Below, in pieces: positions 13,115-30,263 of a DNA stretch of 36,864 nucleotides (positions within the stretch are counted from its first letter, which is position 1; the number at the start of each line of letters is the position of its first letter). Both the position numbers and the translations under genes were made by a program. This DNA is from Eubacterium sp. GTDB lineage: Bacteria > Bacillota > Clostridia > Lachnospirales > Lachnospiraceae. The stretch is from contig JAFRGW010000106.1 in the NCBI GenBank assembly GCA_017433615.1, positions 1-36,864 of the forward strand, in the 5' to 3' direction. The notes beneath the pieces were generated by a model, which was given only the letters and a program-made list of their open reading frames with translations, was not told where the DNA came from and made no database searches.

Positions 13115-13152
13115 GGTTTTTCCTTTCTTGTGATTATGAGAATCCTGGTGAA

Positions 13153-13755
13153 TCATGAAGTATGGGCTGCTTTGACAGCGGCACGTATTTTAGCAGGATC
13201 TTTGTATCCGGCGGTTTCGACGCCGGAGGAGAGATCGACGAGGGCGGGGTGCAGGGTGCGGACAGCGTCCGGGATGTTTTCGGGCGTCAGACCGCCTGCC
13301 AGGTAAAACGGCCGTTCGAAGTCCCGGGCGAGGGTCCAGTCAAAGACCTCGCCGGTGCCGTAGCCGTTGTCCAGAAGGACGGCGTCTGCAGGAGACGCAG
13401 CTGCGTCATCCAGATCGGCAGGTGTACGGATGCGGAATGCCTTCCAGACCGGCAGGCCGGAAGCATGTTGGATCCCGCGGATATATGCGGCGTCTTCCTG
13501 CCCGTGCAGCTGGATCACATCCAGACCGGCCGACTGTGCCGCCTCCAGAACGGTTCCTGCAGGCTGGTTTACAAATACACCAACTGCGCGAATCGCAGGA
13601 TCCAGCTCCTTTCGCAGCACCGCGGCCTGCACGGGCGTCAAATTGCGTCTGCTCTTCGGAAAAAGCAGGATAAAACCGATATAATCCGGTTTCGTCTCAT
13701 TCACATACGCGATATCCTGCGGCCGCGTCAGACCGCAGATTTTGATTTTCGTCAT
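13153..13755 (-). CDS. trpF: Phosphoribosylanthranilate isomerase
   Basis: A 200-residue TIM barrel. The catalytic cysteine is in KICGLT (C7) and the catalytic aspartate in [11 protein letters not shown], slightly different from the more common LLDT..GGTG. The C-terminal phosphate loops AGGLTPENI and DLSSGVE are present. It carries out the Amadori rearrangement before TrpC. GGAGAAATAGAG precedes the ATG. It is separated from trpC by 213 bp containing a repeat cluster, the only large gap in the operon. Confidence 0.95.
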
Positions 13756-13820
13756 ACTCTATTTCTCCATACAGGATGCCCGGATAAGCAGTAGGCCTCT
13801 CCTGTGAACTCGTACTGAAC

Positions 13821-13962
13821 AGGGTCATCAGCATGTCTCTCCGGCGAATCCCTTCTGGGCCGGGGAAGCAAAATGTCACCCCGGCGAATCACACCTGAGC
13901 CGGGTAAGGAGAATGTCTCCCCGACGAATTCCTCCTGAGGCGGGAGACATTCTCCTTACCCG
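13821..13962. repeat. Palindromic repeat cluster inside the trp operon, related to the one at 62-177
   Basis: Three degenerate direct units of about 45 bp share the pattern ATGTC-C-CC-GCGAAT--C-CCTG (cores at 13833, 13873 and 13913). The last is followed by an inverted copy, giving a perfect 21-bp inverted repeat (13901-13921 with 13942-13962) around a 20-nt loop. Layout and core match the reverse complement of the cluster at 62-177 (TTGTCTCCTGCGAATT there, ATGTCTCCCCGACGAATT here). No T-run follows. It starts 6 bp beyond the trpC stop on the transcript. Confidence 0.85.
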
Positions 13963-13968
13963 ATATAT

Positions 13969-14763
13969 CTATGCTTCCCCGCCACACCTCCGCAGGGCAT
14001 CCAGCACAGCCCCTTTGTCCCGCGCCCGCATCAGCGTCTCGCCGATCAGCACGGCATCTGCGCCGATTTTCTTTAAAACGGCGGCGTCTTCCGGCGTCTG
14101 CACGCCGCTTTCGGCAACATACAGACAGTCCGGCGGGATCAGATCGCGCAGTCTTGCGGCGTTTGAGAAGTCCACGCTGAAATCCTTCAGGTTCCGGTTG
14201 TTGACGCCAATGATTTCTGCTCCTGCGCTGACGGCAGAAGCGATCTCTGCTTCGTCATGGGCCTCAACGAGTGCCGCCAGTCCCAGATCAGAAGCGATCT
14301 GCAGATAGCGGGACAGTGTTTCCGTCGGAAGCAGGGCGCAGATCAGAAGAATGCAGTTGGCGCCCATCAGTTTTGCCTGATAGATCTGATACTCATCTAC
14401 AGTGAAGTCTTTGCGCAGCATCGGGATCCGGACCAGCGAACGGATTTCCCGGAAAATGGCATCAGATCCCAGAAACCACTCCGGTTCTGTCAGACAGGAA
14501 ATGCAGTCGGCACCGGCATTTTCATAGGAAGCTGCGATCTGCATATAGTCGAATTCCGGGTCAATGATGCCTTTTGAGGGGGATGCCTTTTTCACCTCAC
14601 AGATGAAGCGCAGGCCGGGTTTTACAAGTGCATCGCAGAATGCCCTGCCGTCTGCCGGCGTACCGGATACAGCGAGTGATCGGAGTTCCTCTGTGCTGAT
14701 TCGTTTCTTTTCGTTTGTGACACGCTCCTGTGCATGTGCCGCGATTTGTTCCAGAATGGTCAT
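13969..14763 (-). CDS. trpC: Indole-3-glycerol phosphate synthase
   Basis: A 264-residue TIM barrel that closes the indole ring. The N-terminal helix is followed by FICEVKKASPSKG (52-64), with the catalytic Glu and Lys. LRKDF, LVEAHDEAEI and GVNNRNLKDF follow, then VAESGVQTPED, all family hallmarks. The ATG at 14763 is preceded by GGAGG at 14771-14775 and begins 3 nt after the trpD stop. A TTG just upstream is less likely. Its end abuts a strong palindrome. Confidence 0.96.
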   Translation of the reverse strand: MTILEQIAAHAQERVTNEKKRISTEELRSLAVSGTPADGRAFCDALVKPGLRFICEVKKASPSKGIIDPEFDYMQIAASYENAGADCISCLTEPEWFLGSDAIFREIRSLVRIPMLRKDFTVDEYQIYQAKLMGANCILLICALLPTETLSRYLQIASDLGLAALVEAHDEAEIASAVSAGAEIIGVNNRNLKDFSVDFSNAARLRDLIPPDCLYVAESGVQTPEDAAVLKKIGADAVLIGETLMRARDKGAVLDALRRCGGEA

Positions 14764-14766
14764 CAA

Positions 14767-15795
14767 TCATTCCTCCGGCCGGTTGCTGACGGCGATCATT
14801 TTGTCCAGTGTTTCAATGGCTTTGCCGGAATCGATCAGACCGGCAGCCATGGAGATGCCATACTCCAGGCGGTTTGCCTTGCCGCCGATGTACAGGGCTG
14901 CGCCTGCATTCAGCAGAACGGCATCCCGCTTCGGACCTCTCTCTTCGCCGCACAGGATGGCGCGCGTGATGGCTGCATTCTCTTCCGGCGTGCCGCCGAC
15001 AAGTTCGTCTTTGGTGCAGCGGATAAATCCGAAATCTTCCGGCTTGATGAGATAGGATTTGAACCATCCGTCCCGGATTTCGCAGATTTTCGTCGGGGCG
15101 CTCATTGATATTTCATCCAGTTTGTCCATGCCGTATACAACCATGCCGCGTTTTACGCCGAGACTGATCAGAACCTGGGCAAGCGGTTCGACCAGATAGT
15201 CGTCGTAGACACCCAGAAGCTGCATGGAGGGACTTCCCGGATTGGTCAGCGGGCCGAGAATGTTGAATACCGTACGGAAGCCGAGTTCCTTTCGGATTGC
15301 GCCGACATATTTCATCGATGTGTGGTATTTCTGTGCGAAGAAGAAGCACATGCCGACTTCGTTCAGAAGTTCAATACAGCGCGCCGGACTCTGGCTGATG
15401 TTGACGCCGAGTGCTTCCAGACAGTCAGCGGTTCCGCTCTTGGAAGATGCAGCGCGGTTTCCGTGTTTGGCGACCTTCATCCCGCCTGCCGCGGCGACGA
15501 TTGCAGCCGTGGTGGAAATGTTAAAGCTCTGTGCATTGTCACCGCCGGTGCCGACGATTTCGAAAAGATCCATATCGGTTTCCACCTTTGTTGCGTGGTC
15601 GCGCATGGCAGCCGCGCAGCCGGCGATCTCATCTGTTGTCTCAGCCCGCGCGCTTTTTGTGGAAAGGGATGCCAGAAACGCGGCGTTCTGTGTCGCGGTT
15701 GTCTCACCGCTCATAATTTCATTCATGACGGTGTAGGCTTCGTCATAGGTCAGGTCTTCTTTGCTTACGATTTTTACAATTGCTTCTTTGATCAT
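14767..15795 (-). CDS. trpD: Anthranilate phosphoribosyltransferase
   Basis: A 342-residue enzyme that joins anthranilate to PRPP. It has the PRPP-binding [14 protein letters not shown], the [14 protein letters not shown] loop and the metal-binding [12 protein letters not shown] region. I start it at the ATG at 15795, with AGAGGAG upstream; an in-frame start 14 codons earlier has no site and extends beyond the family. It is a separate gene, not fused to trpG as in enteric bacteria. There is a 45-nt gap to trpG. Confidence 0.96.
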
Positions 15796-15840
15796 TATTG
15801 GTGCTCCTCTTTTGATCTTAGTGTTCTGAGAATTCAATCT

Positions 15841-16413
15841 TTAATACTCGTGCGAAATAAAATTCCGCAGCATGGTTTCTCCGTACAGGGTCATGATGGA
15901 TTCCGGGTGAAACTGCACACCGAAAACAGGATTTGTTTTGTGCTGTACAGCCATCACTTCCCCGTCTTCCGTGTGTGCAGTGATAAGCAGTTCGTCCGGC
16001 ATGGTTGTTCTGTCGGCTGCCAGAGAGTGATAACGCGCGACCTGCATTTGTTTCGGGCAGCCCCGGAACAGAAGGCAGTCCCGGTCAGTTGTGATCAGCG
16101 ACTGCTTTCCGTGCATCAGCTCTTTTGCGTAGGTAACTGTCGCGCCGTATGCCGCGCAGATTGCCTGGTGGCCGAGGCATACGCCGAGGATCGGGATGTC
16201 TGTGCCGAGTTTCTGTACAACTTCGATGATGCAGCCTGCGTCTTCCGGTCTGCCCGGACCCGGTGAGAGAACAATCCGGGCCGGCGCAAGCGTGCGGATG
16301 TCTTCAACAGACAGTTCATCGTTCCGGATGACGCGGATGTCCGGATCAATTCCGCCGATGAGCTGGTAGAGGTTATAGGAAAAACTGTCATAATTATCAA
16401 TTAAAAGAATCAT
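15841..16413 (-). CDS. trpG: Anthranilate synthase glutamine amidotransferase component
   Basis: A 190-residue class I glutaminase. The catalytic cysteine is C79 in GVCLGHQ, with the His-Glu pair in FHPES (H169, E171) and the N-terminal LIDNYDSFSYN. It supplies ammonia to TrpE. The ATG overlaps the trpE stop (ATGA, 4 bp) and has AGGAGG upstream, so translation is coupled. A dual role with folate synthesis (PabA) is possible but not indicated by this context. Confidence 0.96.
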   Translation of the reverse strand: MILLIDNYDSFSYNLYQLIGGIDPDIRVIRNDELSVEDIRTLAPARIVLSPGPGRPEDAGCIIEVVQKLGTDIPILGVCLGHQAICAAYGATVTYAKELMHGKQSLITTDRDCLLFRGCPKQMQVARYHSLAADRTTMPDELLITAHTEDGEVMAVQHKTNPVFGVQFHPESIMTLYGETMLRNFISHEY

Positions 16414-17876
16414 AAATCCGCCTCCTGTGCCAGTTCGAGTGCTGTGAGAGATGCACGTGCCTTGTTCAGGCATTCCTCGTATTCTTTTTCAGGAACAGAA
16501 TCGGCGACGATGCCGGCGCCGCTGCGTACGAATACCCGCCCGTTCTTTTTGTAGACGATGCGGATGGCGATACAGGTGTCCATGTTTCCGGTAAAATCGA
16601 TGTAGCCGATGGCGCCGCCGTAGATGCCCCGCTTGTCATTTTCCAGTTCTGCGATCAGCTGGCAGGCCCGGATTTTCGGCGCCCCGGAGAGCGTGCCGGC
16701 AGGGAGAACCGCTTCGATTGCATCGAGCGCATCCTTCTCCGGGCGGATCTCGCCGCACACGGTGGAGCCGATGTGCATTACATGGGAGAAGCGCTCAATG
16801 CTGTGAAACTTTTCTACCTGAACCGTCCCGAACCGGCTGATTTTCCCAAGATCATTTCGCCCGAGATCTACCAGCATGTTGTGTTCAGCCAGCTCTTTTT
16901 CATCGGCCAGCAGTTCCTGCTCCAGTGCAATATCCTGCTGCGGTGTTTTCCCGCGCGGCCGTGTGCCGGCAAGCGGAAACGTGTGAAGGATGCCGTCTTC
17001 CAGACGCACCAGTGTCTCCGGCGAAGCACCGGCTACTTCCACATCTGTGCCCGCAAAATAAAACATGTATGGAGACGGGTTGATGGTACGAAGCATGCGA
17101 TAGGTGTTCAGAAGACTTCCCTCAAATGGTGCCGACAGGCGGTTCGAGAGAACAATCTGGAAAATGTCCCCCTCAAAAATATGATGTTTTGCCTGTGCGA
17201 CCATATCGCAAAACTGCTGCCGGTCAAAAAGCGCAGTAACGGCACCGGTCAGCTTTCCGCCCGGTTCATCCCGTTTTGCCCCTGTGCGCAGAAGGCTGAC
17301 CATCTGGTTCAGCTCCAGTACGGCTCTGTTATAGCCCGCTTCGCCGTCCTCCAGCCGCATGTTGACAATCAGGATGATTTTCTGACGCAGATTGTCGAAA
17401 GCGATTACTTTGTCAAACAGCATCAGATCTACATCTTTAAAGGCTTCACTGTCATCAGCGCCGCAGCGGACGGCCGGCTCACTGTAGCCAAGATAATCGA
17501 ACGAGAAATATCCGACCAGTCCGCCGGTAAAGGGCGGAAGATGATCGAAGCGGGGACTTCTGTATCCGGAAAGAATCTGCCGCAGCACATCGGAGGGATT
17601 ATCGGTCTGCATGTGGATATTACCGGCCTGCATTTTTCCGTCAATGCAGGTGACTTCCATGATCGGGTCATAGCCGAGGAATGTGTACCGCCCCCAGGTT
17701 TCATTTGCCTGTGCAGATTCCAGCATGTAACAGTGGCGGGAGACATGTTTCAGAATCCGCATGGTTTCAATCGGCGTTGTAAAATCTGAGAGAATCTCGC
17801 AGCTGACCGGCAGAACATCATAGTTTCCGCTTTCTGCGTAGTATCTGACATCAACAAGGTTCGGTGTAATTTGCAT
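16410..17876 (-). CDS. trpE: Anthranilate synthase component I
   Basis: A 488-residue chorismate-utilising enzyme. The N-terminal feedback-binding segment reads YMLESAQ (the LLESA element of tryptophan-sensitive enzymes) followed by GRYTFLGYDP. The catalytic domain has FAGTDVEVAGASPETLVR, AGTRPRG, ELLADEKELAEHNMLVDLGRND, TLSGAPKIRA and the terminal RSGAGIVADSVPEKEYEE. The ATG at 17876 has TGGAGGTGAAACG upstream; frames running further up enter the T-box leader. It is the first gene of the operon, so it is controlled by the T-box and probably by tryptophan feedback. Confidence 0.97.
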   Translation of the reverse strand: MQITPNLVDVRYYAESGNYDVLPVSCEILSDFTTPIETMRILKHVSRHCYMLESAQANETWGRYTFLGYDPIMEVTCIDGKMQAGNIHMQTDNPSDVLRQILSGYRSPRFDHLPPFTGGLVGYFSFDYLGYSEPAVRCGADDSEAFKDVDLMLFDKVIAFDNLRQKIILIVNMRLEDGEAGYNRAVLELNQMVSLLRTGAKRDEPGGKLTGAVTALFDRQQFCDMVAQAKHHIFEGDIFQIVLSNRLSAPFEGSLLNTYRMLRTINPSPYMFYFAGTDVEVAGASPETLVRLEDGILHTFPLAGTRPRGKTPQQDIALEQELLADEKELAEHNMLVDLGRNDLGKISRFGTVQVEKFHSIERFSHVMHIGSTVCGEIRPEKDALDAIEAVLPAGTLSGAPKIRACQLIAELENDKRGIYGGAIGYIDFTGNMDTCIAIRIVYKKNGRVFVRSGAGIVADSVPEKEYEECLNKARASLTALELAQEADL

Positions 17877-18015
17877 CGTTTCACCTCCATAAAAAATTCG
17901 CATTTTCCTCCTGCTGCGCAGGATCGTGCTCATGCCTGTTGCCTTGTCTGACTCCCGGATGACTGCACACACTTCGTGCGGCAGTATCCGGACGCCCGGC
18001 AAGAGCTTATACAGT

Positions 18016-19483: not shown

Positions 19484-20584
19484 ATGGCAGAGGAAACAAG
19501 GAAGAAAAAGAAAAAGAAGAAATCCGGCAGGATCGGCATGGTTCTGACAATTATTATTATCGTGCTTCTGGTCGGAATTCTGGCGGCGCTGGTGCTGCAG
19601 CGGGGATTCGGCAATGCTGCTTCGAGCGAGATTGCGGCAGTCTCCGGAACTTCGGCAGATGAATTCAAGATGCACTATGTCGGTGAGAATAAGGTTGAGA
19701 TGCCGCAGCTTCCTTCCGAGGAAGAGGCAGCCGCAGCCGAGGCAGAGGCAAAAGCAGAAGCGGCAAAGAACGTGAAAAAGCTTTCCGGTAAGGGCGTGTA
19801 CAGTGATTACGCGCGCATGGTGCGTCTCTCTGACGGCGCGGTTCTGTTTACCAAAGCTTCCAAGGAGAAAATGTACCCGGCGTCCATGACAAAGATTATG
19901 ACCTGCATTCTGGGAATCGAGAATGTAGACGATCTGGACAGCGAAGTCACGATTAAGCAGGAATACATTGATGCGCACTATGCGGAACAGGCGAGCCGCG
20001 CAGGGTTTGAGGCCGGCGAGAAGGTTACCTACCGGGATGTTCTCTATGGCGTTATGCTGCCGTCCGGTGCGGAAGCGTGCATGGCAGTCTGCGACAAGGT
20101 TGCCGGTTCTGAGTCGGCGTTTGTTGATCTGATGAACAAGAAGGCCGAAGAACTGGGCATGAAAAACACGCATTTTACCAATTCGATCGGACTTCACAAT
20201 GAAGATCACTATACGACCTGCAAGGACTTTATCAAGCTGGAGAAGTATGCACTGCAGAATGAAATCTTCAAACAGATTTTCACAGCGCGCAGCTATACAA
20301 CGTCACAGACAGATGTACATCCTGCGGGCATTCCGCTGACGAATAACAGCTATATGCACATTGATACGGTCAACCTGCCGAACGGCGCGGTCTATATGGG
20401 CGGCAAGACAGGGTATACCGATGAGGCAATGCATACCCTTGCCAGCATCTGCCGGTACGAAGGCGAGGAGTACATCATGGTAACGGGACATGCCGGCGGC
20501 GTGGAGCATGCAAACATTGTGGATGCAGTTACGCTGTACAGCAGGCTTGGTGAAGATGCAGAAGAAGAATCGGCAGAAGAGTAA
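19484..20584 (+). CDS. D-alanyl-D-alanine carboxypeptidase (serine type, S11)
   Basis: A 366-residue protein with a Lys-rich start, one membrane segment (about 19-41) and a charged Glu/Ala/Lys linker. A penicillin-binding-protein fold follows with the SxxK motif in [10 protein letters not shown] and the KTG motif in [10 protein letters not shown]. The second motif is PSGAEAC, where the usual asparagine of SxN is alanine, a deviation worth noting. The enzyme trims the terminal D-Ala of peptidoglycan stems outside the membrane, fitting the VanX-like neighbour. I chose the ATG at 19484 for its GGGGAGAGAG site. An upstream ATG at 19406 overlaps the promoter and is unlikely. Confidence 0.9.
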
Positions 20585-20588
20585 CCGG

Positions 20589-20864
20589 GTGAAATACTAT
20601 TATACTTATATGGTGGAGTGCAGTGACGGCAGTTATTACACCGGTTATACGACTGATCTGAAGAAACGGGTAGCCAGTCACAACGCCGGGACCGGTGCAA
20701 AATATACAAAAAGCAGGCGGCCGGTCAGCCTGATCTATGCAGAGCAGTACGAGACAAAGCATGATGCGATGTCCCGAGAGGTAAAGATCAAGCAGCTGTC
20801 GCATCAGGAAAAGGAAGAATTAATTAAGATTAATAAGAGAACAGCCTCTGTCACCGTTTGGTGA
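20589..20864 (+). CDS. GIY-YIG domain protein (UPF0213 type)
   Basis: About 91 residues. [30 protein letters not shown] is the GIY-YIG nuclease core, followed by [15 protein letters not shown], typical of small YhbQ/YazA-like proteins of unknown role. Family members begin MKYY..., so I place the start at the GTG at 20589 (VKYYYTYM). The ATG at 20556 would overlap the previous gene by 29 bp but has a GGTGA nearby and cannot be excluded. The last codons lie inside a palindromic terminator and overlap the convergent gene by 14 bp. Confidence 0.82.
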
Positions 20865-20878
20865 CGGAGGCTGTTTTT
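20841..20878. terminator. Bidirectional terminator shared by two convergent genes
   Basis: ACAGCCTCTGTCACC (20841-20855) pairs with GGTGACGGAGGCTGT (20860-20874), a 15-bp stem with one mismatched pair and a 4-nt loop. It is followed by TTTTTCTT on the plus strand; on the minus strand the tail is TCTCTTATT. Both stop codons lie inside the stem. Confidence 0.88.
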
Positions 20879-23202
20879 CTTATAGGATATCCATATTGAC
20901 GGTAGAGCTGTTCGGCCTGTTCCTGCGCCTGTGTAAGTGCTTCCTCAGGTGTCATGGAACCGCTGGCTGCTGTGCGGAATGCATCGCACAGGATGGACAT
21001 GACATCGCCTGTCGGGATAATTCGCTGTCCTTTCCGGTGCGGAATATAGCGGGGCACGGAAGGCATAATGCTCTGTTCTGACCAAACAAGCCATGGATAA
21101 AGTTTCTGCAGTTCAAAGTTATGGTACGGCTCAGTAAACGGCGATGCACCGTTCAGAACGGTCAGGTAAAAACTGGTGTCGCGTCTGCAGAACCAGTTCA
21201 GATATTCAAAAGCCTCACGGCGCTTCAGCGACCGCGGGTTAACACCGAAGCTGAATCCGCCGCGAACAGGTTTATTTCCGGGAATCCGGAAGGAGCCGAT
21301 CTGTGCCTGCAGATTCTGGCGCAGCAGCCGGCTGATCAGGTGTGCATGATCACTGAAGGAGATCAGCATCGCAGTTTTTCCGCTGCAGAAATCTTCAATA
21401 CTCTGGTCAATGTCTTTTCCTGTATAATCGGGTGCAACATACTGCAGGGTGGTCAGTGCGGCGTCAAATGCCCGCACATTTGCGGCGGTCAGGAATGTCG
21501 GGTGATTGTATGAATCCCAGAGTGCTCCGCCGTAGGATGACAGACGGATCAGCAGCTCGGGCCCGAGAAATTCATTGCTGCGCGCTGTAAAAGAAGTGCC
21601 GTATTCTGTCGGCGAGCCGGGGTTTACCGAACGTGTAAAAAAGGCCGCAATATTGTTAAATTCTGTCCAGGTGCGCGGCGGGCGCAGGGACAGGGTATTA
21701 TTCAGGGCAAATGCTTTCTGAAAAGCGGAATCCTGAAAAAAATCACTCCTGTAAAACAGGATCTGACTTGCGGCGGTGAAGGGAATGCCGTGCATTCTCC
21801 CGTCAATGAGGCAGTTTTCCAGTGTCTGGCTGAAAAAGCGGTCCGTGTTGATATGATACTGGCTGATGAAATCCGACAAATCTGTCAGACAGCCGTGTTC
21901 GGCCATCAGATCGCGCCACGGGGAATTATAGGTAAACAGGTCATATGTTTCGAGGATGGACTGATAATCCTCCCGCATTTTTTTGTGAAGATCCTCCTGA
22001 ACACATACGTCGTATGTTACGGGAATGCCTGTCCGGTCGGTGAAATTGCGCGTCAGCGAAATGATCGGCTGGGTCGCGGTGGTGTCGACAATCAGAATGC
22101 GGAGACCGGGCGGTCTGGTTCCGGTGCTGTTTACCGGCCCCGGCTGATGCTGCCGGAGCGTGCCGGCGTCCGGGAAATCAAGTGCGTCATCGGCGGTCGT
22201 ATCCTCCAGTTCGCTGTAGACAAGATCATTCAAATCGGGCTGTTCGATGCTGCGGATCATTGCCTTTGCGGCCAGATCGCCAAGCTGCATTGCCGGGCGT
22301 GCAATCTGGTGCATGCCGTTTCCGGCCTGCATGTTGTTCCAGGATTCCTCGCCGAATGTGATCACCAGGAGATCTTCCGGGATGCTGAGACCGCAGTAGC
22401 GGACTGCGGCGTTGATTCCTTTTTCAATTTCGCGGCTGGTGCAGATGATGGCTTCCGGTGCAGTGTTGGCGTACCGGGAAAGATAATCGCGGAATGCATC
22501 TTCTTTGTTCATATTAACAGAGAAGATCAGTGATTCAATGTCCGTGGTGCCGGGACTCCTGTCCGGCAGACCGGATTCGCTGTAAGAAGCGATTGCATCC
22601 TGATATCCCTGCAGACAGTTCTGCTCCGGGGAAAACATCAGGGGGCCGCAGGCAAGCAGTATTCTGCGGTAGCCTCTTTCCAGGAGATGTGTCACGAGCC
22701 GGTAGGTTGCCTGGTAGGAATTAAACCCGATGAAATTCGTGGCAAAAGAGGTAGGCGCGCGCTCAATAAAGACGGTCGGCACACCGACATCAGCGACACG
22801 GTGCTGAAAAAAATCTGTCTGCTCCGGCTGACATGTGATCAGAAGAAGGCCGTCAATATTCATTGCAACCAGCTCGCTGATGCTTTTCTGTTCCTGTTCC
22901 GGGATGTCATTGGAAAAAGCCACCCGGGGAATATAGCCATGGCTCTGTAAATAGGAAGAGAGACTGGTAAAAATACTTGCGTACAGTGCATCCTGTATAT
23001 TCGGCAGAACAATACCGATCGATTTGGAAGCAGTAACACGCAGACTGCGCGCAGAGGCATTCGGTACATAGCCGAGCGCCTGTGCGGCCTCCAGAACGCG
23101 TTCACGCGTATCGGGTTTAACGGGACGTGAATTATTTAATACATAGGAAACGGTTGCGACAGATACGCCTGCTTTTGCGGCGACTTCTTTAATTGTACTC
23201 AT
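20851..23202 (-). CDS. LacI-family regulator fused to a solute-binding-protein-like domain
   Basis: A 783-residue protein. Residues 1-55 are a LacI DNA-binding domain ([22 protein letters not shown], and the hinge helix near NASARSLR). Residues 58-340 are the usual LacI/GalR effector domain ([38 protein letters not shown]). A Pro/Gly-rich joint leads to residues 365-775, which look like a family-1 extracellular solute-binding protein ([57 protein letters not shown]). There is no signal peptide or membrane segment, so the second module is cytoplasmic and presumably senses a second ligand. LacI proteins are normally about 340 residues. AAAGGAC precedes the ATG. It is divergent from the dehydrogenase gene, its likely target. 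Confidence 0.88.
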
Positions 23203-23303: not shown

Positions 23304-23332
23304 AGTATATATTCCAGGAAGTCTGTTGTAAA
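23304..23332 (-). promoter_or_regulatory. Promoter of the LacI/solute-binding fusion gene
   Basis: On the minus strand TTTACA (23332-23327), 17 nt, TATACT (23309-23304), about 100 nt before the start codon. Confidence 0.68.
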
Positions 23333-23344
23333 GGTGAAATTAAC

Positions 23345-23356
23345 TTAAACGATTAA
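23345..23356. promoter_or_regulatory. Candidate LacI-type operator between divergent promoters
   Basis: TTAAACGATTAA has the central CG and flanking TTAA arms of LacI/GalR sites (10 of 12 positions symmetric). It lies 13 bp from the regulator's -35 box and 22 bp from that of the dehydrogenase gene. Assignment to the fusion regulator is inferred from position. Confidence 0.5.
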
Positions 23357-23377: not shown

Positions 23378-23406
23378 TTGAAATTAGCAAAAAGGCATTG
23401 TATTAT
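23378..23406 (+). promoter_or_regulatory. Promoter of the Gfo/Idh/MocA dehydrogenase gene
   Basis: TTGAAA (23378-23383), 17 nt, TATTAT (23401-23406). The A-rich leader of about 155 nt up to the start codon shows no obvious hairpin. Confidence 0.8.
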
Positions 23407-23568: not shown

Positions 23569-24747
23569 ATGAACATCGGCGAAAAGAAAATTGCAAGACC
23601 TTTCAGATGGGGAATCGTAGGCGGCGGACGTACAAGCCAGGTCGGATACAAGCATCGTCTTGGCGCACGCATGGACAACACAAACTTTGATCTGCAGGCA
23701 GCAGCATTCGATATCGACGCTGACCGCTGCGTAGATTTCGGTAAGGCTCTGAACATGGATCCGGAGCGTCTGTACCCGGACTACAAGACCATGTTCGCAA
23801 AAGAAGCTGAGCGCGAAGACGGCATCGAAGTTGTTGACATCGCTACACCGAACTTCCAGCACTACGAAGTCTGCAAAGCTGCTCTTGAGGCAGGCCTGCA
23901 TGTCATCTGCGAGAAGCCGCTGTTTTTCGAAGTTGAGCAGGGTCTTGAGATCAAGAAACTCGCTGAGGAAAAGGGCAAAGTTGTCTGCGTAACATACGGA
24001 TTCTCCGGATTCCCGATGCTCCTGCAGATGCGCGCAATGGTTCAGAGCGGCATGCTCGGAAAGATCAACATGGTTGACCTTCGCTATGCACATGGATTTG
24101 GCTGCAACGCTGAGGCGGATGTCAAGGCAGAAGGACAGAAGTGGCGTGTTGACCCGGCAAAGGTTGGTAAATCCTTCGTTCTCGGCGACCTGTCCACACA
24201 TACATTCTACATGAGCCAGCTGATCTGCCCGGATCTGAAGCTGAAACAGGTTCTGTGTGACCGCCAGGCATTTGTCGGTTCCAGATATCCGCTGGAGGAC
24301 AACGCATATGTACTGATGCGCTATGAGAGCGGTGCTGTCGGCCGTATGTGGGCATCCGCTGTCAACGCAGGCGACATGAGCTCCCAGCACATCCGTATCG
24401 TCGGCTCCAAGGCTTCTCTGGAGTGGAACGACCAGACATGCGACCAGCTTCGCTACGAAGTACAGGGTCAGCCGGCGCAGATCCTGACCCGCGGCATGGA
24501 CTACCTCGATGGCCTCGCACAGGAAGACGAGCGTCTGGGCGCACTTCACTATGAAGGACTTCCGGAGAGCTGGGCAAACCTGTACACCAGATTCGCACAG
24601 GTTATCGACGCAAAGAACCGCGGCGACGAAGAGACTGTCAACAGCATCATCTATCCGGATCTTGACCACGGCATCGACGGCATCCGCTGGATCAACAGCT
24701 GTGCAAAATCCGCTGACGAAGGCGCTGTCTGGGTAGATTTTGAATAA
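23569..24747 (+). CDS. Gfo/Idh/MocA-family NAD(P)-dependent oxidoreductase
   Basis: A 392-residue protein. The Rossmann start is WGIVGGGRTSQVG, followed by DIATPNFQHYEVC and the family signature HVICEKPLFF. The C-terminal sheet domain includes LGDLSTHTFYMSQL with a likely catalytic-region histidine. The family oxidises sugars, cyclitols or glycosides at a secondary hydroxyl. Paired with a TIM-barrel isomerase downstream, it may form a 3-keto-sugar or keto-inositol route; the substrate is not readable from sequence. AAAAGGAG precedes the ATG. An open frame running back to 23398 covers the promoter and leader and is not the gene start. Confidence 0.9.
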   Translation: MNIGEKKIARPFRWGIVGGGRTSQVGYKHRLGARMDNTNFDLQAAAFDIDADRCVDFGKALNMDPERLYPDYKTMFAKEAEREDGIEVVDIATPNFQHYEVCKAALEAGLHVICEKPLFFEVEQGLEIKKLAEEKGKVVCVTYGFSGFPMLLQMRAMVQSGMLGKINMVDLRYAHGFGCNAEADVKAEGQKWRVDPAKVGKSFVLGDLSTHTFYMSQLICPDLKLKQVLCDRQAFVGSRYPLEDNAYVLMRYESGAVGRMWASAVNAGDMSSQHIRIVGSKASLEWNDQTCDQLRYEVQGQPAQILTRGMDYLDGLAQEDERLGALHYEGLPESWANLYTRFAQVIDAKNRGDEETVNSIIYPDLDHGIDGIRWINSCAKSADEGAVWVDFE

Positions 24748-25081
24748 TAAAACCAGATAACCGGACATCGGGATTTATCAGCTGGTGTCAGCCTGAAAAG
24801 AAGAAAAAACTGCCGGACCGCCCCGGGTAATGCCGGGGCGGTTTTGGGCGGTTTTGCAGAAAATATAGGATCCGCAAAAACGGCAAAAAAAATCTTTGGA
24901 AACCAGGCGATATATAAAGAAGTTCATACCCTTCCGGGGGTAGAGAAGAATCTGACATTGCATTTTTTATATGGTTACTTGCCGGGAAGGTTATATAATA
25001 AAACCATAAACCTGATTCCGCAGTCAGGATAAAGGGAGAAGGTATTTATCAAACTGGCAAAAGATGTTAAGGAGGAAACAA
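24748..25081 (+). other. 334-bp intergenic region: terminator, then A/T-rich leader
   Basis: The first part holds the terminator at 24817-24846. The rest is A-rich and contains TATAAT at 24994-24999 without a recognisable -35 box, so the isomerase promoter may depend on an activator. A CDS here is not supported: short open frames lack sites and family features. Confidence 0.5.
24817..24846 (+). terminator. Intrinsic terminator after the dehydrogenase gene
   Basis: ACCGCCCCGG pairs perfectly with CCGGGGCGGT (24817-24826 with 24833-24842), followed by TTTTG. The T-run is short, so read-through into the isomerase gene is possible. Confidence 0.8.
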
Positions 25082-26050
25082 ATGAAGCTTTCAATTTGTA
25101 CAGATGTATTCGGTCCGATCCCGTTCACAGAGATGCTCGACAAGGTTGTTGCATATGGCATTCCTGCAATTGAACTGACCGCAGGCGGCTGGGGTGGATG
25201 TCATTTTATTCCTTCAGCAGAAGAGCTGATCAACAATCCGGACAAGCTCGCTGCATTCAAGGCAGAGATCGACAAGAGAGGCCTTGAGATTTCCGCACTG
25301 AACTGCTCCGGCAATCCGCTGATCGACACACCGATGGGCAAGGCGCACAGCAAGACCCAGCACGACACCCTGAAACTCGCAGGCCTCCTGGGTGTTAAGA
25401 CGATCGTTACCATGTCCGGTCTTCCGGCAGGTGCGCCTGGCGACAAGACCCCGAACTGGATCGTTTCCACCATCTCCTGGCCGGAGTATGACGGATTCAA
25501 CTACATGGCAGAAGCTGTGAAGTATCAGTGGGAAGTTGCTGCAGAGTGGTGGAAAGAGTTCTGCCAGTGTGCAAAGGACAACGGCGTTGAGAAGATTGCG
25601 ATCGAGGAGTTCCCGGGCGCGCTTGTTCACAATGTCCGCACATTCAACAAGCTCTGCGAAGTTGTAGGACCGGAGCTGTCTGACGTACTCGGACTGAACC
25701 TGGATCCGTCCCACCTGATGATTCAGGGTGCAGAGCCGATCGCGGCTGCACGTGCACTGGGCGATAAGATTTACTATGTACACGGCAAGGATGCACGTCC
25801 GGAACAGTACAATGTCGATGTTGACGGACTGCTCGAGAATCTGCCGGTCACCGAGACAAAAGACCGCACATGGAATTATGTCGCAGTCGGCTGCGGCAAG
25901 GATCTGAAATGGTGGAAAGAGTTCTTCTCTGTCTGCTCCATGATGGGATATGACGGATATGTATCTCTGGAGATGGAAGATCTTACCATGTCCGTAGAGG
26001 CGGGCCTTCAGACATCCATCGATGCACTGAAGATGACGATCAGTCAGTAA
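25082..26050 (+). CDS. Sugar phosphate isomerase/epimerase-like TIM-barrel protein
   Basis: A 322-residue protein of the xylose-isomerase-like (AP endonuclease family 2) barrel. Likely metal ligands are the glutamate in KIAIEEFPG, the aspartate and histidine in LNLDPSHL, the histidine in YYVHGKDA and the glutamate in VSLEMED. The pattern SALNCSGNPL resembles IolE/epimerase-type proteins that act on keto-sugars. AAGGAGGAAAC gives a strong ribosome site before the ATG at 25082. It stands after the dehydrogenase, so it probably isomerises that enzyme's keto product. Exact substrate unknown. Confidence 0.88.
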   Translation: MKLSICTDVFGPIPFTEMLDKVVAYGIPAIELTAGGWGGCHFIPSAEELINNPDKLAAFKAEIDKRGLEISALNCSGNPLIDTPMGKAHSKTQHDTLKLAGLLGVKTIVTMSGLPAGAPGDKTPNWIVSTISWPEYDGFNYMAEAVKYQWEVAAEWWKEFCQCAKDNGVEKIAIEEFPGALVHNVRTFNKLCEVVGPELSDVLGLNLDPSHLMIQGAEPIAAARALGDKIYYVHGKDARPEQYNVDVDGLLENLPVTETKDRTWNYVAVGCGKDLKWWKEFFSVCSMMGYDGYVSLEMEDLTMSVEAGLQTSIDALKMTISQ

Positions 26051-26429: not shown

Positions 26430-27932
26430 GTGGCGGAAAAAAAGGTTGCTATCGAGCTGAAAAACATTTCCAAGTCTTTTCCGGGTGTAAAAGCGCTGGA
26501 TAATGTCAGCTTCACAGTAAACGAAGGCGAATGTCACGTTCTGGTAGGCGAGAATGGCGCCGGTAAATCGACACTGATCAAATGTATCAATGGCATGTAC
26601 ACAGCCGATGAAGGCGAGGTATATGTCTTCGGAGAGAAGATTACCACCCACAATCCGAGATACATGAAGGAAAAAGGTGTTGCGACAATCCATCAGGAGC
26701 TGAACCCGGTTCCGGATCTGACCATCGCAGAGAACATTTTCCTTGGAAGACTGCCGCAGAACAAGTTCAAGATGATCAACAAGAAGTATATGTTCAAAGA
26801 GGCACAGCGCCTCATCGATGAACTTGGCTTCAAGTATGATGCAAAAGCACTGATGCGTTCACTGACCGTATCGGATACACAGATCATCGAGATTATCAAG
26901 GCAATCTCAGTTAACGCAAAAATCATTATCATGGATGAGCCGACATCCTCAATCACAGAGGCAGAGGTAGCTGTCCTTCATGAGCAGGTTATGCGCCTGA
27001 AGAAGATGGGCATTGCTATCATCTACATTTCTCATAAGCTTGACGAGCTGAAAGTCGTCGGTGACAGACTGACCGTTCTTCGAGACGGAAAGAGTATTTC
27101 CTCTCATGATATCAATGACCTCACACAGGATGAGATCATTGCAAAGATGGTCGGACGTAAGATGGACAACGTTTATCCGGAGAAGACCAACAAGGTCGGC
27201 GAGCCGCTCTTTGAGGTCAAGGATCTTTCCGGCGAAAAGTTCCACAATGTCACATTCACGCTTCATAAAGGCGAGATTCTCGGCATGGCAGGACTGGTCG
27301 GCGCAGGCCGTACAGAGACATGCCGCGGCATCTTCGGTCTTGATCCGATTAAGAGCGGAACGATGACCCTGAACGGCAAAGAGGTTAAAGTCAGCAAGGT
27401 AAAAGATGCAATTGATCATGGTATCATTTACCTCTCTGAGGACCGTAAGCTGGAAGGTCTTGTCCTGATCCGTTCGATCTGTGAGAACATCGGACTTCCG
27501 AATCTGAAGAAGTACAGAGGCGTATTCCTGAACAAGATTGCAGAGCGTAAGGATGCAGAGGAGATGAAAGGAAAACTCCGCATTAAGACGCCTTCGATCG
27601 ACACACCGGCAATGAGTCTTTCCGGCGGTAACCAGCAGAAGGTCGTTATTGCAAAATGGCTGCTGCAGAATCCGCTCGTATTCATCTGCGATGAGCCGAC
27701 ACGTGGTATCGACGTCGGTGCGAAGTATGAGATTTATAAGATCATGATCGATCTGGCTGAACAGGGCGCAGGCGTTATCATGATTTCCTCAGAACTTCCG
27801 GAGATTATCGGTGTCTGCGACAGAACACTGGTAATGGCAGAGGGACGTGTTACAGGTGAAGTTATGAGAGAGGACTTCTCTCAGGAAGCGATTATGAGTT
27901 TTGCATTAGGAGGAAGTGCGGCTAATGGCTAA
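26430..27932 (+). CDS. Sugar ABC transporter ATPase (RbsA/MglA type, two nucleotide-binding domains)
   Basis: A 500-residue protein. The first domain has Walker A GENGAGKST (about 39-47), a degenerate signature region (LTVSDTQIIEI) and Walker B IIIMDEPTSS. The second has the altered Walker A GLVGAGRTE, a full LSGGNQQKV signature and Walker B VFICDEPTRGID. That asymmetry is normal for the ribose/galactose class. It powers import with the permease and binding protein encoded next. The start is GTG at 26430, set by AAAGGAGGG just upstream. Its stop overlaps the permease start by 8 bp. The cargo may be a pentose, hexose or inositol; the neighbouring iol genes favour a cyclitol, by inference. Confidence 0.94.
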   Translation: MAEKKVAIELKNISKSFPGVKALDNVSFTVNEGECHVLVGENGAGKSTLIKCINGMYTADEGEVYVFGEKITTHNPRYMKEKGVATIHQELNPVPDLTIAENIFLGRLPQNKFKMINKKYMFKEAQRLIDELGFKYDAKALMRSLTVSDTQIIEIIKAISVNAKIIIMDEPTSSITEAEVAVLHEQVMRLKKMGIAIIYISHKLDELKVVGDRLTVLRDGKSISSHDINDLTQDEIIAKMVGRKMDNVYPEKTNKVGEPLFEVKDLSGEKFHNVTFTLHKGEILGMAGLVGAGRTETCRGIFGLDPIKSGTMTLNGKEVKVSKVKDAIDHGIIYLSEDRKLEGLVLIRSICENIGLPNLKKYRGVFLNKIAERKDAEEMKGKLRIKTPSIDTPAMSLSGGNQQKVVIAKWLLQNPLVFICDEPTRGIDVGAKYEIYKIMIDLAEQGAGVIMISSELPEIIGVCDRTLVMAEGRVTGEVMREDFSQEAIMSFALGGSAANG

Positions 27933-28890
27933 GGCAGAGAAAAAAGAATTTAATTTTGGTGAATTTTATAGTAAATATGGTATTTTCCTGATTTTCATTC
28001 TGATGTTCATCATCTTCGCAGTTGTAAACCACAACTTCCTTTCCGGTATGAACATCCGAAACATCCTGAGACAGGTCGTTGTTATCACCCTGCTTGCCTG
28101 CGGTGAGCAGTTCATGATCATCTGCGGCATGATCGACCTGGGTGCATCCCGAGTCCTTGCCTGCGCAGGTACCCTTTCAGCATACTGCATGCTGACAACA
28201 CACAACCTGTTCCTTGCAATCCTGGTAGCACTGTTCACAGGACTTTGCTTCGGCGCTTTTGCAGGTTTCTTCATTACAAAGTTTGATATCCCGCCGTTCA
28301 TCGCAACACTGGCAACCATGATGGTCGCTGAAGGTTTCATCATGACCTTCACAGGCGGACAGAACTACTCCAACCTCGGTGATGCTTATACATTCATCGG
28401 CCAGGGATACATCGGAATCATTCCGTTCCCGGTTATCCTGATGATCATCATCCTGCTGATCACCTACTATATCCTGTCCTGGACTCCGATCGGACGCGGC
28501 ATGTATGCAGTCGGTGGTAACCAGAATGCTGCAAAAGCTTCCGGTATCAACGTCAGCATGGTTAAGTTCTTCGCAGCAGTTTATTCCGGACTTATGTCAG
28601 CAGCAGCAGGTATCGTCCTGATGGCTCGTATGAACTCCGGTCAGCCGGCAGCAGCTCTTACCTACGAGATGGACGCAATCGCAGCCGTTGTCATGGGTGG
28701 TACATCCATGGCAGGTGGTACTGGTACAGTTGTTAACACCATTATCGGTTCTCTGATCATCGGTATCATCCGTAACTTCATGAACCTGCAGAACATCACA
28801 GCATCTCTGCAGAAACTCGTTCTTGGTCTTCTGGTACTGCTCGCAGTTATCATCGATACTGTTGTACGTAACGCCAGAACAAAAGGCTGA
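27925..28890 (+). CDS. Sugar ABC transporter permease (RbsC type)
   Basis: A 321-residue protein with about nine or ten membrane segments and the family landmarks MIDLGASRVLACAG, GFFITKFDIPPFIATLATM, GRGMYAVGGNQNAAKASGI and AAVVMGGTSMAGGTGTV. It forms the membrane channel of the importer. The ATG at 27925 lies inside the ATPase stop region (8-bp overlap) with AGGAGG 11 nt upstream, so translation is coupled. The gene avoids rare-looking codons, as do its neighbours to the right, suggesting high expression. Confidence 0.94.
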   Translation: MAKAEKKEFNFGEFYSKYGIFLIFILMFIIFAVVNHNFLSGMNIRNILRQVVVITLLACGEQFMIICGMIDLGASRVLACAGTLSAYCMLTTHNLFLAILVALFTGLCFGAFAGFFITKFDIPPFIATLATMMVAEGFIMTFTGGQNYSNLGDAYTFIGQGYIGIIPFPVILMIIILLITYYILSWTPIGRGMYAVGGNQNAAKASGINVSMVKFFAAVYSGLMSAAAGIVLMARMNSGQPAAALTYEMDAIAAVVMGGTSMAGGTGTVVNTIIGSLIIGIIRNFMNLQNITASLQKLVLGLLVLLAVIIDTVVRNARTKG

Positions 28891-28930
28891 TTTCGTAAGA
28901 GTTAGTGCTTAATTAAGTTTATAAACGGAT

Positions 28931-28966
28931 GTCAGGCGGATGTCACCCGATTATCGTCCGCCTGGC
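28931..28966 (+). other. Hairpin between permease and binding-protein genes
   Basis: CAGGCGGA (28933-28940) pairs with TCCGCCTG (28957-28964) over a 16-nt loop. No T-run follows, so it is probably not a terminator. Stable stems upstream of a binding-protein gene often protect a processed, more abundant mRNA segment, which would suit the stoichiometric excess of binding protein. Confidence 0.5.
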
Positions 28967-29063
28967 AGACCGCACCACTCACCTTGATTGATATATGCTC
29001 CGTTATTTACGGGCATATGTTAATAAATATATCTTTTTTATTTTCATTAAGGGAGGAAAACAA

Positions 29064-30263
29064 ATGAAAAAAAAGATTCTTGCATCAATCCTTGCAGCAG
29101 GTATGGTAGCTAGCCTTGCAGCATGCGGCGGCAGCTCTTCTTCAGGCGGAGACAGCGCAGCAGCAAGCAGCGCAGCAGCAAGCAGCGCAGCAGAAGCTAC
29201 TTCTGAAGCAGCAGAAGCAGCAAGCAGCGCAGCAGAAGCTACATCTGAGGCAGCTGATGATGCAGCAGCAGAGGATGCTGGTTCTGAAGATTCCGAGACA
29301 GATATCATGTACACAAAGGCTGACATCGAAGCAGCAGCTGATGGCCTTGGCGACTGGGAAGCTGATTATGACATGGCTATCTCCGGTGATGAAGCTTTCA
29401 CATGGGGCTACATCGACATGGGATTCAAGGATACCTTCACAACCAAGATCCGTAACACATTCAAATATTACTGCGAACTGAACTTCCCGAATGTCACAAT
29501 TAACGAAGGTGACGGTGAGATGGACCCGAACAGACAGCTTCAGCTGGCTGAGAACTTCATCACACAGGGTGTTGATGCGATCATCCTTGACCCGACAGAC
29601 GCTGACGGATGCCTTGGTATCGTTGAGCTCTGCCAGGAAGCTGAGATGCCGCTCGTACTGGTTAACGCTATTGTCCACACAGATGCTATGAACAATGGTA
29701 TCGGCTTCGTTGGTTCTGATAACTACTATGCAGGACAGCTTGAGGCTGAATGGATCATCGCTAACGTTGATGACTCTGAGACAGTTAACATGTGCTATCA
29801 GAGAGGTCAGGAAGGTTACGACCACACAGAACTTCGTCAGAAAGGTGTCTTCGAGACTCTTGACGCAGCTGGATACAACTATGATCTGAAGGCTGTTCTG
29901 ATTTCTGACTACATGCGTGACAAAGCTATGAACAACGCAGAAGACTGGACCAACAGCTTCGGCGAAGACATCAAGGTTATTCCGTGCTGCAACGACGAGT
30001 CCGCTATGGGTACTCTGCAGGCATACCAGGCAGCAGGTCTTGCTGATGGCGTTTCTATCCTTGGTATCGATGCAAACCAGGATGCTCTTCAGGAAGTTAA
30101 GGCCGGCAACCTTGCTTGCACAGTCTTCCAGAATGGTCTTGCACAGGCTAAATGGGCAGCAGCTTCCGCATACGACGCTTGCGTAAACGGCACAGTTGAG
30201 ACTAAGGGCGTTGACGTTCCGTTCGAGCTGGTTGATGCTACAAACATTGATGACTATCTCTAA
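29064..30263 (+). CDS. Sugar-binding lipoprotein of the ABC transporter (periplasmic-binding type 4)
   Basis: A 399-residue protein with signal peptide and lipobox LAACGG (lipidated Cys near residue 21). A linker of Ala, Ser, Glu and Thr follows (about 22-80), then a type I periplasmic-binding fold with QLAENFITQGVDAIILDPTD, GFVGSDNYYAG and ILGIDANQDALQEVKAG, as in RbsB-like proteins. It is longer than RbsB, with an N-terminal ADIEAAADGLGDWEADYD segment. It captures the substrate at the outer membrane face. GGGAGG lies before the ATG at 29064; an open frame from 28995 is leader. An antisense open frame across it is a codon-bias shadow. Confidence 0.93.
   Translation: MKKKILASILAAGMVASLAACGGSSSSGGDSAAASSAAASSAAEATSEAAEAASSAAEATSEAADDAAAEDAGSEDSETDIMYTKADIEAAADGLGDWEADYDMAISGDEAFTWGYIDMGFKDTFTTKIRNTFKYYCELNFPNVTINEGDGEMDPNRQLQLAENFITQGVDAIILDPTDADGCLGIVELCQEAEMPLVLVNAIVHTDAMNNGIGFVGSDNYYAGQLEAEWIIANVDDSETVNMCYQRGQEGYDHTELRQKGVFETLDAAGYNYDLKAVLISDYMRDKAMNNAEDWTNSFGEDIKVIPCCNDESAMGTLQAYQAAGLADGVSILGIDANQDALQEVKAGNLACTVFQNGLAQAKWAAASAYDACVNGTVETKGVDVPFELVDATNIDDYL
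29175..29258 (+). repeat. 42-bp tandem repeat in the lipoprotein linker
   Basis: Two 42-bp units (29175-29216, 29217-29258; about 37 of 42 bases alike) encode the 14-residue motif AASSAAEATSEAAE/D twice. Slippage here would change linker length in steps of 14 residues without breaking the frame. Confidence 0.85.

What the first reader, a model, noticed from the sequence alone, without database searches (positions are those of the whole stretch)
20851..23202. LacI regulator fused to a cytoplasmic solute-binding-protein domain
A complete LacI protein (DNA-binding plus effector domain) continues into about 410 residues resembling a family-1 extracellular solute-binding protein, without signal peptide. 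This gives two ligand-binding modules on one repressor, a possible logic gate for two sugars, or a transporter component recruited as a sensor. I know of no characterised regulator with this layout.
Basis: partly seen in the sequence, partly recalled or inferred. Interest (0 to 1): 0.76.

Follow-up and report, generated by a model that had tools for sequence, protein, structure and literature searches.

The report
Sugar-gene regulator with captured transporter receptor
A bacterial gene switch of the lac-repressor type carries, fused to its tail and kept inside the cell, a copy of the receptor that transporters normally use outside the cell; it belongs to a widespread, apparently uncharacterised family in which that receptor seems to have taken over the job of sensing the signal.

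Summary
Confirmed. Window 20851-23202 (-) encodes one intact 783-aa protein: LacI helix-turn-helix, LacI core, then a complete family-1 solute-binding protein (SBP) without signal peptide. It is no artefact: such fusions occur in 34 of 397 sampled genomes of its family (own included), in Rhizobium, and in 46 of 5426 E. coli genomes (44 on plasmids), annotated 'extracellular solute-binding protein' in nearly all records listed. Both halves form single clades and evolve together.

The 'two-sugar logic gate' is not favoured. The LacI core lost its hallmark inducer residues (LacI R197 equivalent: 0 of 45 fusions, 28 of 30 ordinary LacIs; D274 equivalent: 2 of 45, 24 of 30), while SBP pocket positions are kept. 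Best reading: the core became a dimeric relay and the captured SBP is the sensor.

The DNA site at 23345 is unique in the window and conserved in two orthologues. Across the family such sites lie 25-27 or 37 bp upstream of the predicted -35 box of the divergent operon (19 of 35 loci; about 2 expected). This points to contact with RNA polymerase (activator-like, or GalR-OE-like), not simple promoter blocking. Ligand, sign of regulation and structure are untested; AlphaFold models were unusable.

The parts
20851..23202 (-). LacI-SBP fusion gene, 783 aa
23029..23202 (-). LacI-type HTH and hinge helix (residues 1-58)
   Evidence: Pfam LacI 3-48, E 1e-18; A8, V13, S14, T17, V18, S19, L54 invariant in alignment A1
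22192..23028 (-). LacI core, PBP1-type (residues 59-337), inducer-pocket hallmarks lost (C196, G284)
   Evidence: (R 0 of 45 vs 28 of 30; D 2 of 45 vs 24 of 30); C196 and G284 align with Arg and Asp of E. coli RbsR 9ny7 and ancestral LacI 9nt3
22114..22191 (-). variable linker (residues 338-363)
   Evidence: low conservation in the alignments; borders chosen by eye
20854..22113 (-). family-1 solute-binding domain (residues 364-783), cytoplasmic
   Evidence: Pfam SBP_bac_8/1; PDB profile hits 5iai, 1eu8; no signal peptide by hydropathy
23345..23356 (.). predicted operator TTAATCGTTTAA (LacI-type, CG-centred)
   Evidence: unique in window, identical in L016, one change in L015, family-wide enrichment of such sites
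23304..23332 (-). predicted promoter of the fusion gene, TTTACA-N17-TATACT
   Evidence: also found by the consensus scan; counterpart in both orthologues
23378..23406 (+). predicted promoter of the divergent operon, TTGAAA-N17-TATTAT; -35 starts 27 bp from the operator centre
   Evidence: (locus represented there by L016)
23569..24747 (+). divergent gene 1: Gfo/Idh/MocA oxidoreductase (ATG at 23569 after AGGAG, start read by eye)
   Evidence: Pfam
25064..26050 (+). xylose-isomerase-like TIM barrel protein
   Evidence: Pfam AP_endonuc_2
26430..30263 (+). CUT2-type ABC importer: ATPase (26430-27932), permease (27916-28890), Peripla_BP_4 lipoprotein (28995-30263)
   Evidence: ORFs; Peripla_BP_4; ATPase and permease named by eye from the sequence
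20840..20875 (.). strong hairpin shared by the 3' ends of the fusion gene and the convergent GIY-YIG gene (likely two-way terminator)
   Evidence: -30.2 kcal/mol, z -9.5

Best explanation
It is a LacI-type DNA-binding regulator in which a cytoplasmic, signal-peptide-less family-1 solute-binding domain has become the ligand sensor, while the original LacI core has lost its inducer pocket and serves as dimerisation and relay module. The dimer binds the CG-centred operator at 23345-23356 between two divergent promoters. Ligand closing the SBP domain changes how the bound dimer contacts RNA polymerase (or whether it binds), so switching the divergent operon (Gfo/Idh dehydrogenase, TIM-barrel enzyme, CUT2 ABC importer); the fixed 27/37-bp spacing to the -35 box favours contact-type regulation, activation more likely than contact inhibition. 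Shown computationally: layout, family, common descent of the fusions sampled, loss of LacI hallmark residues, retained SBP pocket positions, operator and its spacing. Inferred: sensing by the SBP domain, relay role of the core, RNA-polymerase contact, its sign. Unknown: ligand.
For: Layout. Family (overlapping samples, own genome included in each): 19 of 299 genomes at E<=1e-60, 34 of 397 at E<=1e-80, 17 of 392 in the order sample, 2 of 398 in the phylum sample; E. coli 46 of 5426. Gap in 5 genomes: fused SBP domains score 460-569 bits, best free SBP 134. Trees: 45 fused rows one side of a branch in both halves, SH-aLRT 93 (SBP) and 94 (LacI); LacI-core and SBP divergence correlate, r 0.90, 0 of 999 permutations as high. 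Inducer residues lost (positions checked). SBP pocket positions mapped on trehalose/maltose-binding protein: D70 equivalent D in 42 of 45 (N in the three window-clade rows), W257 equivalent aromatic in 44 of 45, W295 equivalent aromatic in 39 of 45, R364 equivalent R in 35 of 45. SBP identity exceeds core identity in 85% of 990 pairs. Operators: 17 of 45 upstream regions hold a CG palindrome with >=7 of 8 pairs, about 1.0 expected. Spacing to the divergent -35: 27 bp in 10, 25 in 4, 37 in 5 of 35 loci; shuffles 0.98 (max 4 in 500 runs) for 25-28 bp, 0.99 (max 5) for 35-38 bp.
Against: No binding, expression or structural data. Both AlphaFold jobs failed (pLDDT 33 and 37). 24 of 59 non-redundant members have no operator by my rule. 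In two members of the E. coli branch (L045, L106) the site lies over the divergent -35, a repressor-like place. 9 of 35 loci have a second copy of their site within 2.5 kb, so looping repression is not excluded there. The divergent -35 boxes are near consensus, not the weak boxes usual at activator-dependent promoters (general knowledge). The adjacent importer has its own SBP of another class, so why this SBP class was captured is unexplained. The LacI core keeps conserved residues of its own (E104, E234, S256, W288), so it may bind something. The window clade itself has N and F where most of the family has D and W in the SBP pocket. I have no yardstick for how fast LacI cores and SBPs diverge when not fused.
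Confidence: 0.65

Rival explanations
1. Two-input regulator: both the LacI core and the SBP domain bind ligands and are integrated.
For: Two PBP-type modules are present; the core is present in every fusion aligned and has its own conserved positions E104, E234, S256, W288.
Against: Hallmark inducer residues gone in 45 of 45 (R) and 43 of 45 (D; kept in L087, L099) fusions; the core diverges more than the SBP half and is not recognised by Pfam in the E. coli member.
Confidence: 0.15
2. Contact inhibitor or conventional repressor: the fusion represses the divergent operon and is released by ligand, as GalR does from OE at -60.5 on gal P1.
For: GalR at OE (-60.5) represses P1 by RNA-polymerase contact and activates P2 (passages of PMC4693257); near-consensus divergent promoters; site over the -35 in L045 and L106; second sites within 2.5 kb in 9 of 35 loci.
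Against: In the window the site overlaps neither predicted promoter and no second site within 1 mismatch exists; 25/27/37-bp phasing equally fits class-I activation.
Confidence: 0.3
3. The SBP half is a structural or docking remnant (for example it binds the importer's components) and does not sense a ligand.
For: No ligand known; window clade changes D to N and W to F at two mapped pocket positions.
Against: Pocket positions kept across most of the family, full-length SBP in the fusions sampled, no free-standing copy of this SBP type in the 5 genomes searched.
Confidence: 0.1

Closest known systems
LacI/GalR family regulators (CcpA, PurR, RbsR, GalR)
   Same: HTH, hinge helix, PBP1-type core, CG-centred palindromic operator; best PDB matches of the family profile's N-half are CcpA and PurR, of the window core RbsR and ancestral LacI
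   Different: extra 420-residue SBP domain; inducer-pocket Arg and Asp lost; operator at fixed distance upstream of the divergent -35
SgrR / DsvR (HTH + C-terminal SBP_bac_5 domain)
   Same: a DNA-binding domain joined to a cytoplasmic solute-binding domain as presumed sensor (passages of PMC13060122)
   Different: different HTH and SBP families, no LacI core; Btr of B. subtilis is another precedent that I recall only
Engineered chimeras of periplasmic binding proteins and DNA-binding domains
   Same: a binding protein made the sensor of a cytoplasmic regulator, LacI's DNA-binding domain among those used (abstract and passages of PMC6079105)
   Different: man-made; the binding protein replaces the LacI core instead of being added behind it
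Family-1 sugar SBPs of CUT1 importers (5iai, 1eu8 TMBP, 4qrz)
   Same: SBP domain homologous over nearly full length
   Different: no signal peptide or lipobox, fused to a regulator, family-specific block RPP.TW.EFN.IA.FFTR..NP.SPT.YGTS
GalR at gal OE (-60.5) and CRP class-I sites (-61.5)
   Same: operator centre about 60-64 bp upstream of the predicted start in 14 of 35 loci
   Different: sign of regulation here unknown; spacing rests on predicted promoters

Membership tests
LacI/GalR transcription regulators | N-terminal LacI HTH plus hinge helix | tested here: met
   Pfam PF00356 E 1e-18; invariant A8, V13, S14, L54
LacI/GalR transcription regulators | PBP1-type core | tested here: met
   Peripla_BP_1/3 above cut-off; five diverged members of the E. 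coli branch align with the family core, hhalign probability 99.9
LacI/GalR transcription regulators | inducer-contact Arg (LacI R197/PurR R190) and Asp (LacI D274/PurR D275); roles and numbers recalled, positions aligned | tested here: not met
   R 0 of 45, D 2 of 45 fusions vs 28 and 24 of 30 ordinary. Not a requirement for the family by fold, but it argues against sensing in this pocket
LacI/GalR transcription regulators | CG-centred palindromic operator near the gene | tested here: met
   the window site is an imperfect palindrome (5 of 8 pairs); binding itself not tested
Family-1 extracellular solute-binding proteins | SBP_bac_1/SBP_bac_8 domain over full length | tested here: met
Family-1 extracellular solute-binding proteins | export signal or lipobox, works outside the cell with an importer | tested here: not met
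   N-terminus is the HTH, max hydropathy 1.18; so it is an SBP domain, not an extracellular SBP
SgrR family | SgrR-type HTH plus SBP_bac_5 domain | tested here: not met
   Pfam finds LacI HTH and SBP_bac_8/1, no SBP_bac_5 up to E 1
Class-I type activator sites | site upstream of -35 at fixed helical phase | tested here: inconclusive
   25/27/37 bp in 19 of 35 loci, but promoters are predicted and the sign is unknown

The most novel reading that the evidence does not exclude
A widespread LacI subfamily has moved its sensor: the native inducer pocket is abandoned and a captured ABC-importer receptor, now cytoplasmic, drives a contact-type (class-I-like) activator bound at a fixed helical phase upstream of the divergent operon; in a branch that also spread on E. 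coli plasmids the same architecture switched to a site over the -35 (seen in two members).
Probability: 0.4. Interest if true: 0.75.

Novelty: new variant of a known kind. Interest (0 to 1): 0.62.

Why it matters
LacI-type regulators are the textbook example of a switch whose own pocket reads the sugar. A whole family that discards that pocket and reads its signal through a captured transport receptor would show how sensing can be transplanted onto an existing switch in nature, as engineers have tried by hand, and would offer a natural template for biosensors with SBP specificity. It also points to a mis-annotation: these regulators are named 'extracellular solute-binding protein' in 19 of the 20 E. 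coli and Rhizobium plasmid records listed and in all 8 listed. The operator-promoter spacing rule makes the activator question directly testable.

Tried and rejected
Artefact of joined genes: rejected (two orthologues, paralogue, E. coli complete genomes). Fused SBP as the displaced SBP of the neighbouring importer: unlikely in the window, whose importer is CUT2-type with its own Peripla_BP_4 protein. Operator as a CcpA cre site: unlikely; the window site lacks the TG...CA ends of cre (recalled), and the E. coli member, L106 and L228 all match ATTGRAACGTGTCAAT without mismatch. Papers: one search listed two papers (one, PMC6079105, then seen in abstract and passages); searches returned none; none describes a natural LacI + SBP regulator. 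The LacI regulon survey PMC4052901 has no 'fused', 'fusion' or 'solute-binding' in its main text (find only).

Limits: free controls for the trees came from few genomes (5 for SBPs, 3 for LacIs, plus neighbours of fusions), so 'single origin' means not contradicted. The 45 fused rows include near relatives (window, L015, L016 and others). One 409-bit row (L170, 296 aa) was left out of the free SBPs because its locus edge cuts through a fusion gene. In wide genome samples only 2 candidates per genome were scored (3), so counts are lower bounds. In one search five fusions (L091, L102, L104, L222, L224) were dropped because my HTH pattern missed them; 69 proteins remained, 59 after removal at 75% identity, 35 with an operator. 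Control: of 30 ordinary LacIs 8 had a site by the same rule; one (L003) also lay at -60. In the residue count, 14 low-scoring relatives (score 50 or less) were set aside; 11 of those 14 also carry R and 11 D. In one search L230 (same DNA as L015) and L044 were left out; close relatives remain. Which trehalose/maltose-binding protein residues touch sugar: W295 seen in a passage of PMC13311272; Asp70 and domain closure seen in a passage of PMC7949145, which names another organism; W257 and R364 recalled.

Full report
Observation. The minus-strand ORF 20851-23202 is intact and encodes 783 residues. Pfam finds the LacI HTH (3-48), the PBP1-type LacI core (60-281 and 170-321) and an SBP_bac_8/SBP_bac_1 domain (385-674), each above its curated cut-off. 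Residues 341-783 match solved sugar SBPs (4qrz E 3e-14), and the family profile of the SBP half aligns nearly end to end with 5iai and with trehalose/maltose-binding protein 1eu8. Among the 60 PDB sequences listed for the full-length profile none covers both halves (18 more were not listed). There is no signal or membrane segment by hydropathy.

Not an artefact, not alone. The window genome has a second full-length copy (L002, 38%). Orthologues at 84-85% lie in two other assemblies (L015 Eubacterium sp. RGIG4369, L016 Lachnospiraceae bacterium FE2018; L017 is the same DNA as L016). In overlapping samples of the window's family, own genome included, 19 of 299 genomes had full-length matches at E<=1e-60 and 34 of 397 at E<=1e-80 with the profile; 17 of 392 in the order; 2 of 398 in the phylum. 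Fifty-three plasmid records hold a place covering at least 80% of the query; the 20 listed are 19 of E. coli and one of Rhizobium rhizoryzae. The E. coli gene is in 46 of 5426 genomes, 44 places on plasmids and 2 on chromosomes. The E. coli protein has a LacI HTH and SBP_bac_1 domain, and its core is too diverged for Pfam, but five members of its branch together align with the family core by profile comparison. The records call these proteins extracellular solute-binding proteins, which hides the regulator.

Origin. With free SBPs and LacIs as controls (20 and 30 rows), the 45 fused SBP domains form one side of a branch (SH-aLRT 93) and so do the 45 fused LacI parts (94; 99 without L099). Core and SBP divergence correlate at r 0.90 (0 of 999 permutations). 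In five genomes searched with the SBP profile, every match of about 460 bits or more lies in a frame of 758 or more residues; the best free SBPs reach 134 and 123 bits. So this looks like one old fusion inherited as a unit, with transfer to Pseudomonadota (inference); the control sample is small.

Which half senses? In LacI/PurR the inducer or corepressor is held by an Arg (R197/R190) and an Asp (D274/D275) (roles recalled). The window's C196 and G284 align with these Arg and Asp positions in E. coli RbsR and an ancestral LacI. There the fusions have Arg in 0 of 45 and Asp in 2 of 45 (L087, L099), against 28 and 24 of 30 ordinary LacIs. The core keeps other, family-specific residues (E104, E234, S256, W288), which may be a relay surface or a changed pocket. 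In the SBP half, positions that align with trehalose/maltose-binding protein D70, W257, W295 and R364 (alignment printed) are D in 42 of 45 (N in the three window-clade rows), aromatic in 44, aromatic in 39 and R in 35 of 45; the window clade has F at the W295 position. The SBP half is more alike than the core in 85% of 990 pairs (medians 28% and 22%), though I have no unfused yardstick for these rates. I conclude that the SBP is the likelier sensor (inference).

Where it binds. Upstream regions of fusion genes are rich in CG-centred palindromes: 17 of 45 have at least 7 of 8 pairs, about 1.0 expected in shuffles. The window site TTAATCGTTTAA (23345-23356) has only 5 of 8 pairs as a 16-mer but is unique in the window, unchanged in L016 and with one change in L015. 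Outer bases of the site follow residue 20 of the HTH: all 11 members with Cys20 and a site carry an ATC or GAT end in at least one half, against 1 (L231) of 31 other members with a site (counted by eye), as expected if the fusion itself reads it; members are related, so this is supporting only. The E. coli, L106 and L228 members match ATTGRAACGTGTCAAT without mismatch.

Geometry. In the window the site overlaps neither predicted promoter: -35/-10 of the fusion gene are at 23332-23304 (-) and of the divergent operon at 23378-23406 (+), both also found by the consensus scan. Over 35 non-redundant loci with a site (the window represented by L016), the best predicted divergent promoter has its -35 box 27 bp (10 loci), 25 bp (4) or 37 bp (5) from the site centre; shuffled sequence gives 0.98 on average (max 4 in 500 runs) for 25-28 bp and 0.99 (max 5) for 35-38 bp, so the 37-bp group is weaker evidence by itself. 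27 and 37 differ by about one helical turn. On the fusion gene's own side the distance is scattered (7-27 bp in 22 of 27 loci with a promoter there). This is what a protein touching RNA polymerase from one face would need, as CRP at -61.5 or GalR at OE (-60.5), which inhibits P1 and activates P2 (PMC4693257, passages). I lean to activation because the site is outside both promoters and the window has no second site for looping, but the near-consensus -35 boxes speak for caution, and 9 of 35 loci do have a second copy of their site within 2.5 kb. In L045 (E. coli) and L106 the site covers a divergent TTGACA (L106: -29; L045 read by eye from the sequence, with a poor -10): a repressor-like place, so the family may include both signs. 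24 of 59 members have no site by my rule.

What it controls. In the window the divergent genes encode a Gfo/Idh oxidoreductase, a TIM-barrel protein and a CUT2-type importer with its own Peripla_BP_4 receptor. Of 73 loci examined, 31 have a CUT2 ATPase and permease within 8 kb, 11 a phosphonate-type importer, 1 a CUT1 importer, 21 a URO-D-like enzyme, 15 a GDPD and 11 an MgtC gene; 30 of 73 have none of the three importer types by this test; 43 of 71 with a known upstream neighbour are divergent (several contigs end early and close relatives are included). The fused SBP is of the CUT1 class although the importer nearby is more often CUT2, so the sensor was not simply the neighbour's own receptor. 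The ligand cannot be named from this evidence.

Compared with what is known. By HTH, fold and operator it is a LacI-family member; by mechanism it resembles SgrR and DsvR, which join an HTH to an SBP_bac_5 domain (PMC13060122, passages), but the families are different, and engineered chimeras of binding proteins with DNA-binding domains (PMC6079105, abstract and passages). My literature searches returned no description of a natural LacI + SBP regulator; the library is partial. Hence: a new variant of a known kind, with a possibly general lesson about moving sensors between proteins.

Noticed in passing
Receptor capture by LacI may have happened more than once.
   Followed up: partly
   Followed up: partly
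window 20840-20875: A very stable hairpin (-30.2 kcal/mol, z -9.5) lies in the overlapping 3' ends of the fusion gene and the convergent GIY-YIG gene (20490-20864), so the last residues of the fusion are encoded inside it.
   Followed up: partly
L045, L106, L228, L211, L212, L103, L229: Branch with the site ATTGRAACGTGTCAAT (no mismatch in L045, L106, L228; 1-2 in the others). Several lie beside aminoethylphosphonate-type importers, GDPD and MgtC genes; the E. coli plasmid copy beside PhnP-like MBL, nucleoside-permease-like MFS and MgtC genes.
   Followed up: partly
L072, L069, L071 and others (21 of 73 loci): URO-D-like (PF01208) proteins recur near the fusion, often as the divergent neighbour and with a CUT2 importer; their role there is unclear.
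   Followed up: no
window 11167-18002 (-): Looks like a tryptophan biosynthesis operon (named by eye), unrelated to the finding.
   Followed up: no
L067 (MT836780.1), MT837991.1: Two unannotated 'Bacteriophage sp.' faecal contigs in the phage collection carry LacI-SBP matches (27-29% identity, 70-76% of the query); probably bacterial DNA labelled as phage.
   Followed up: no
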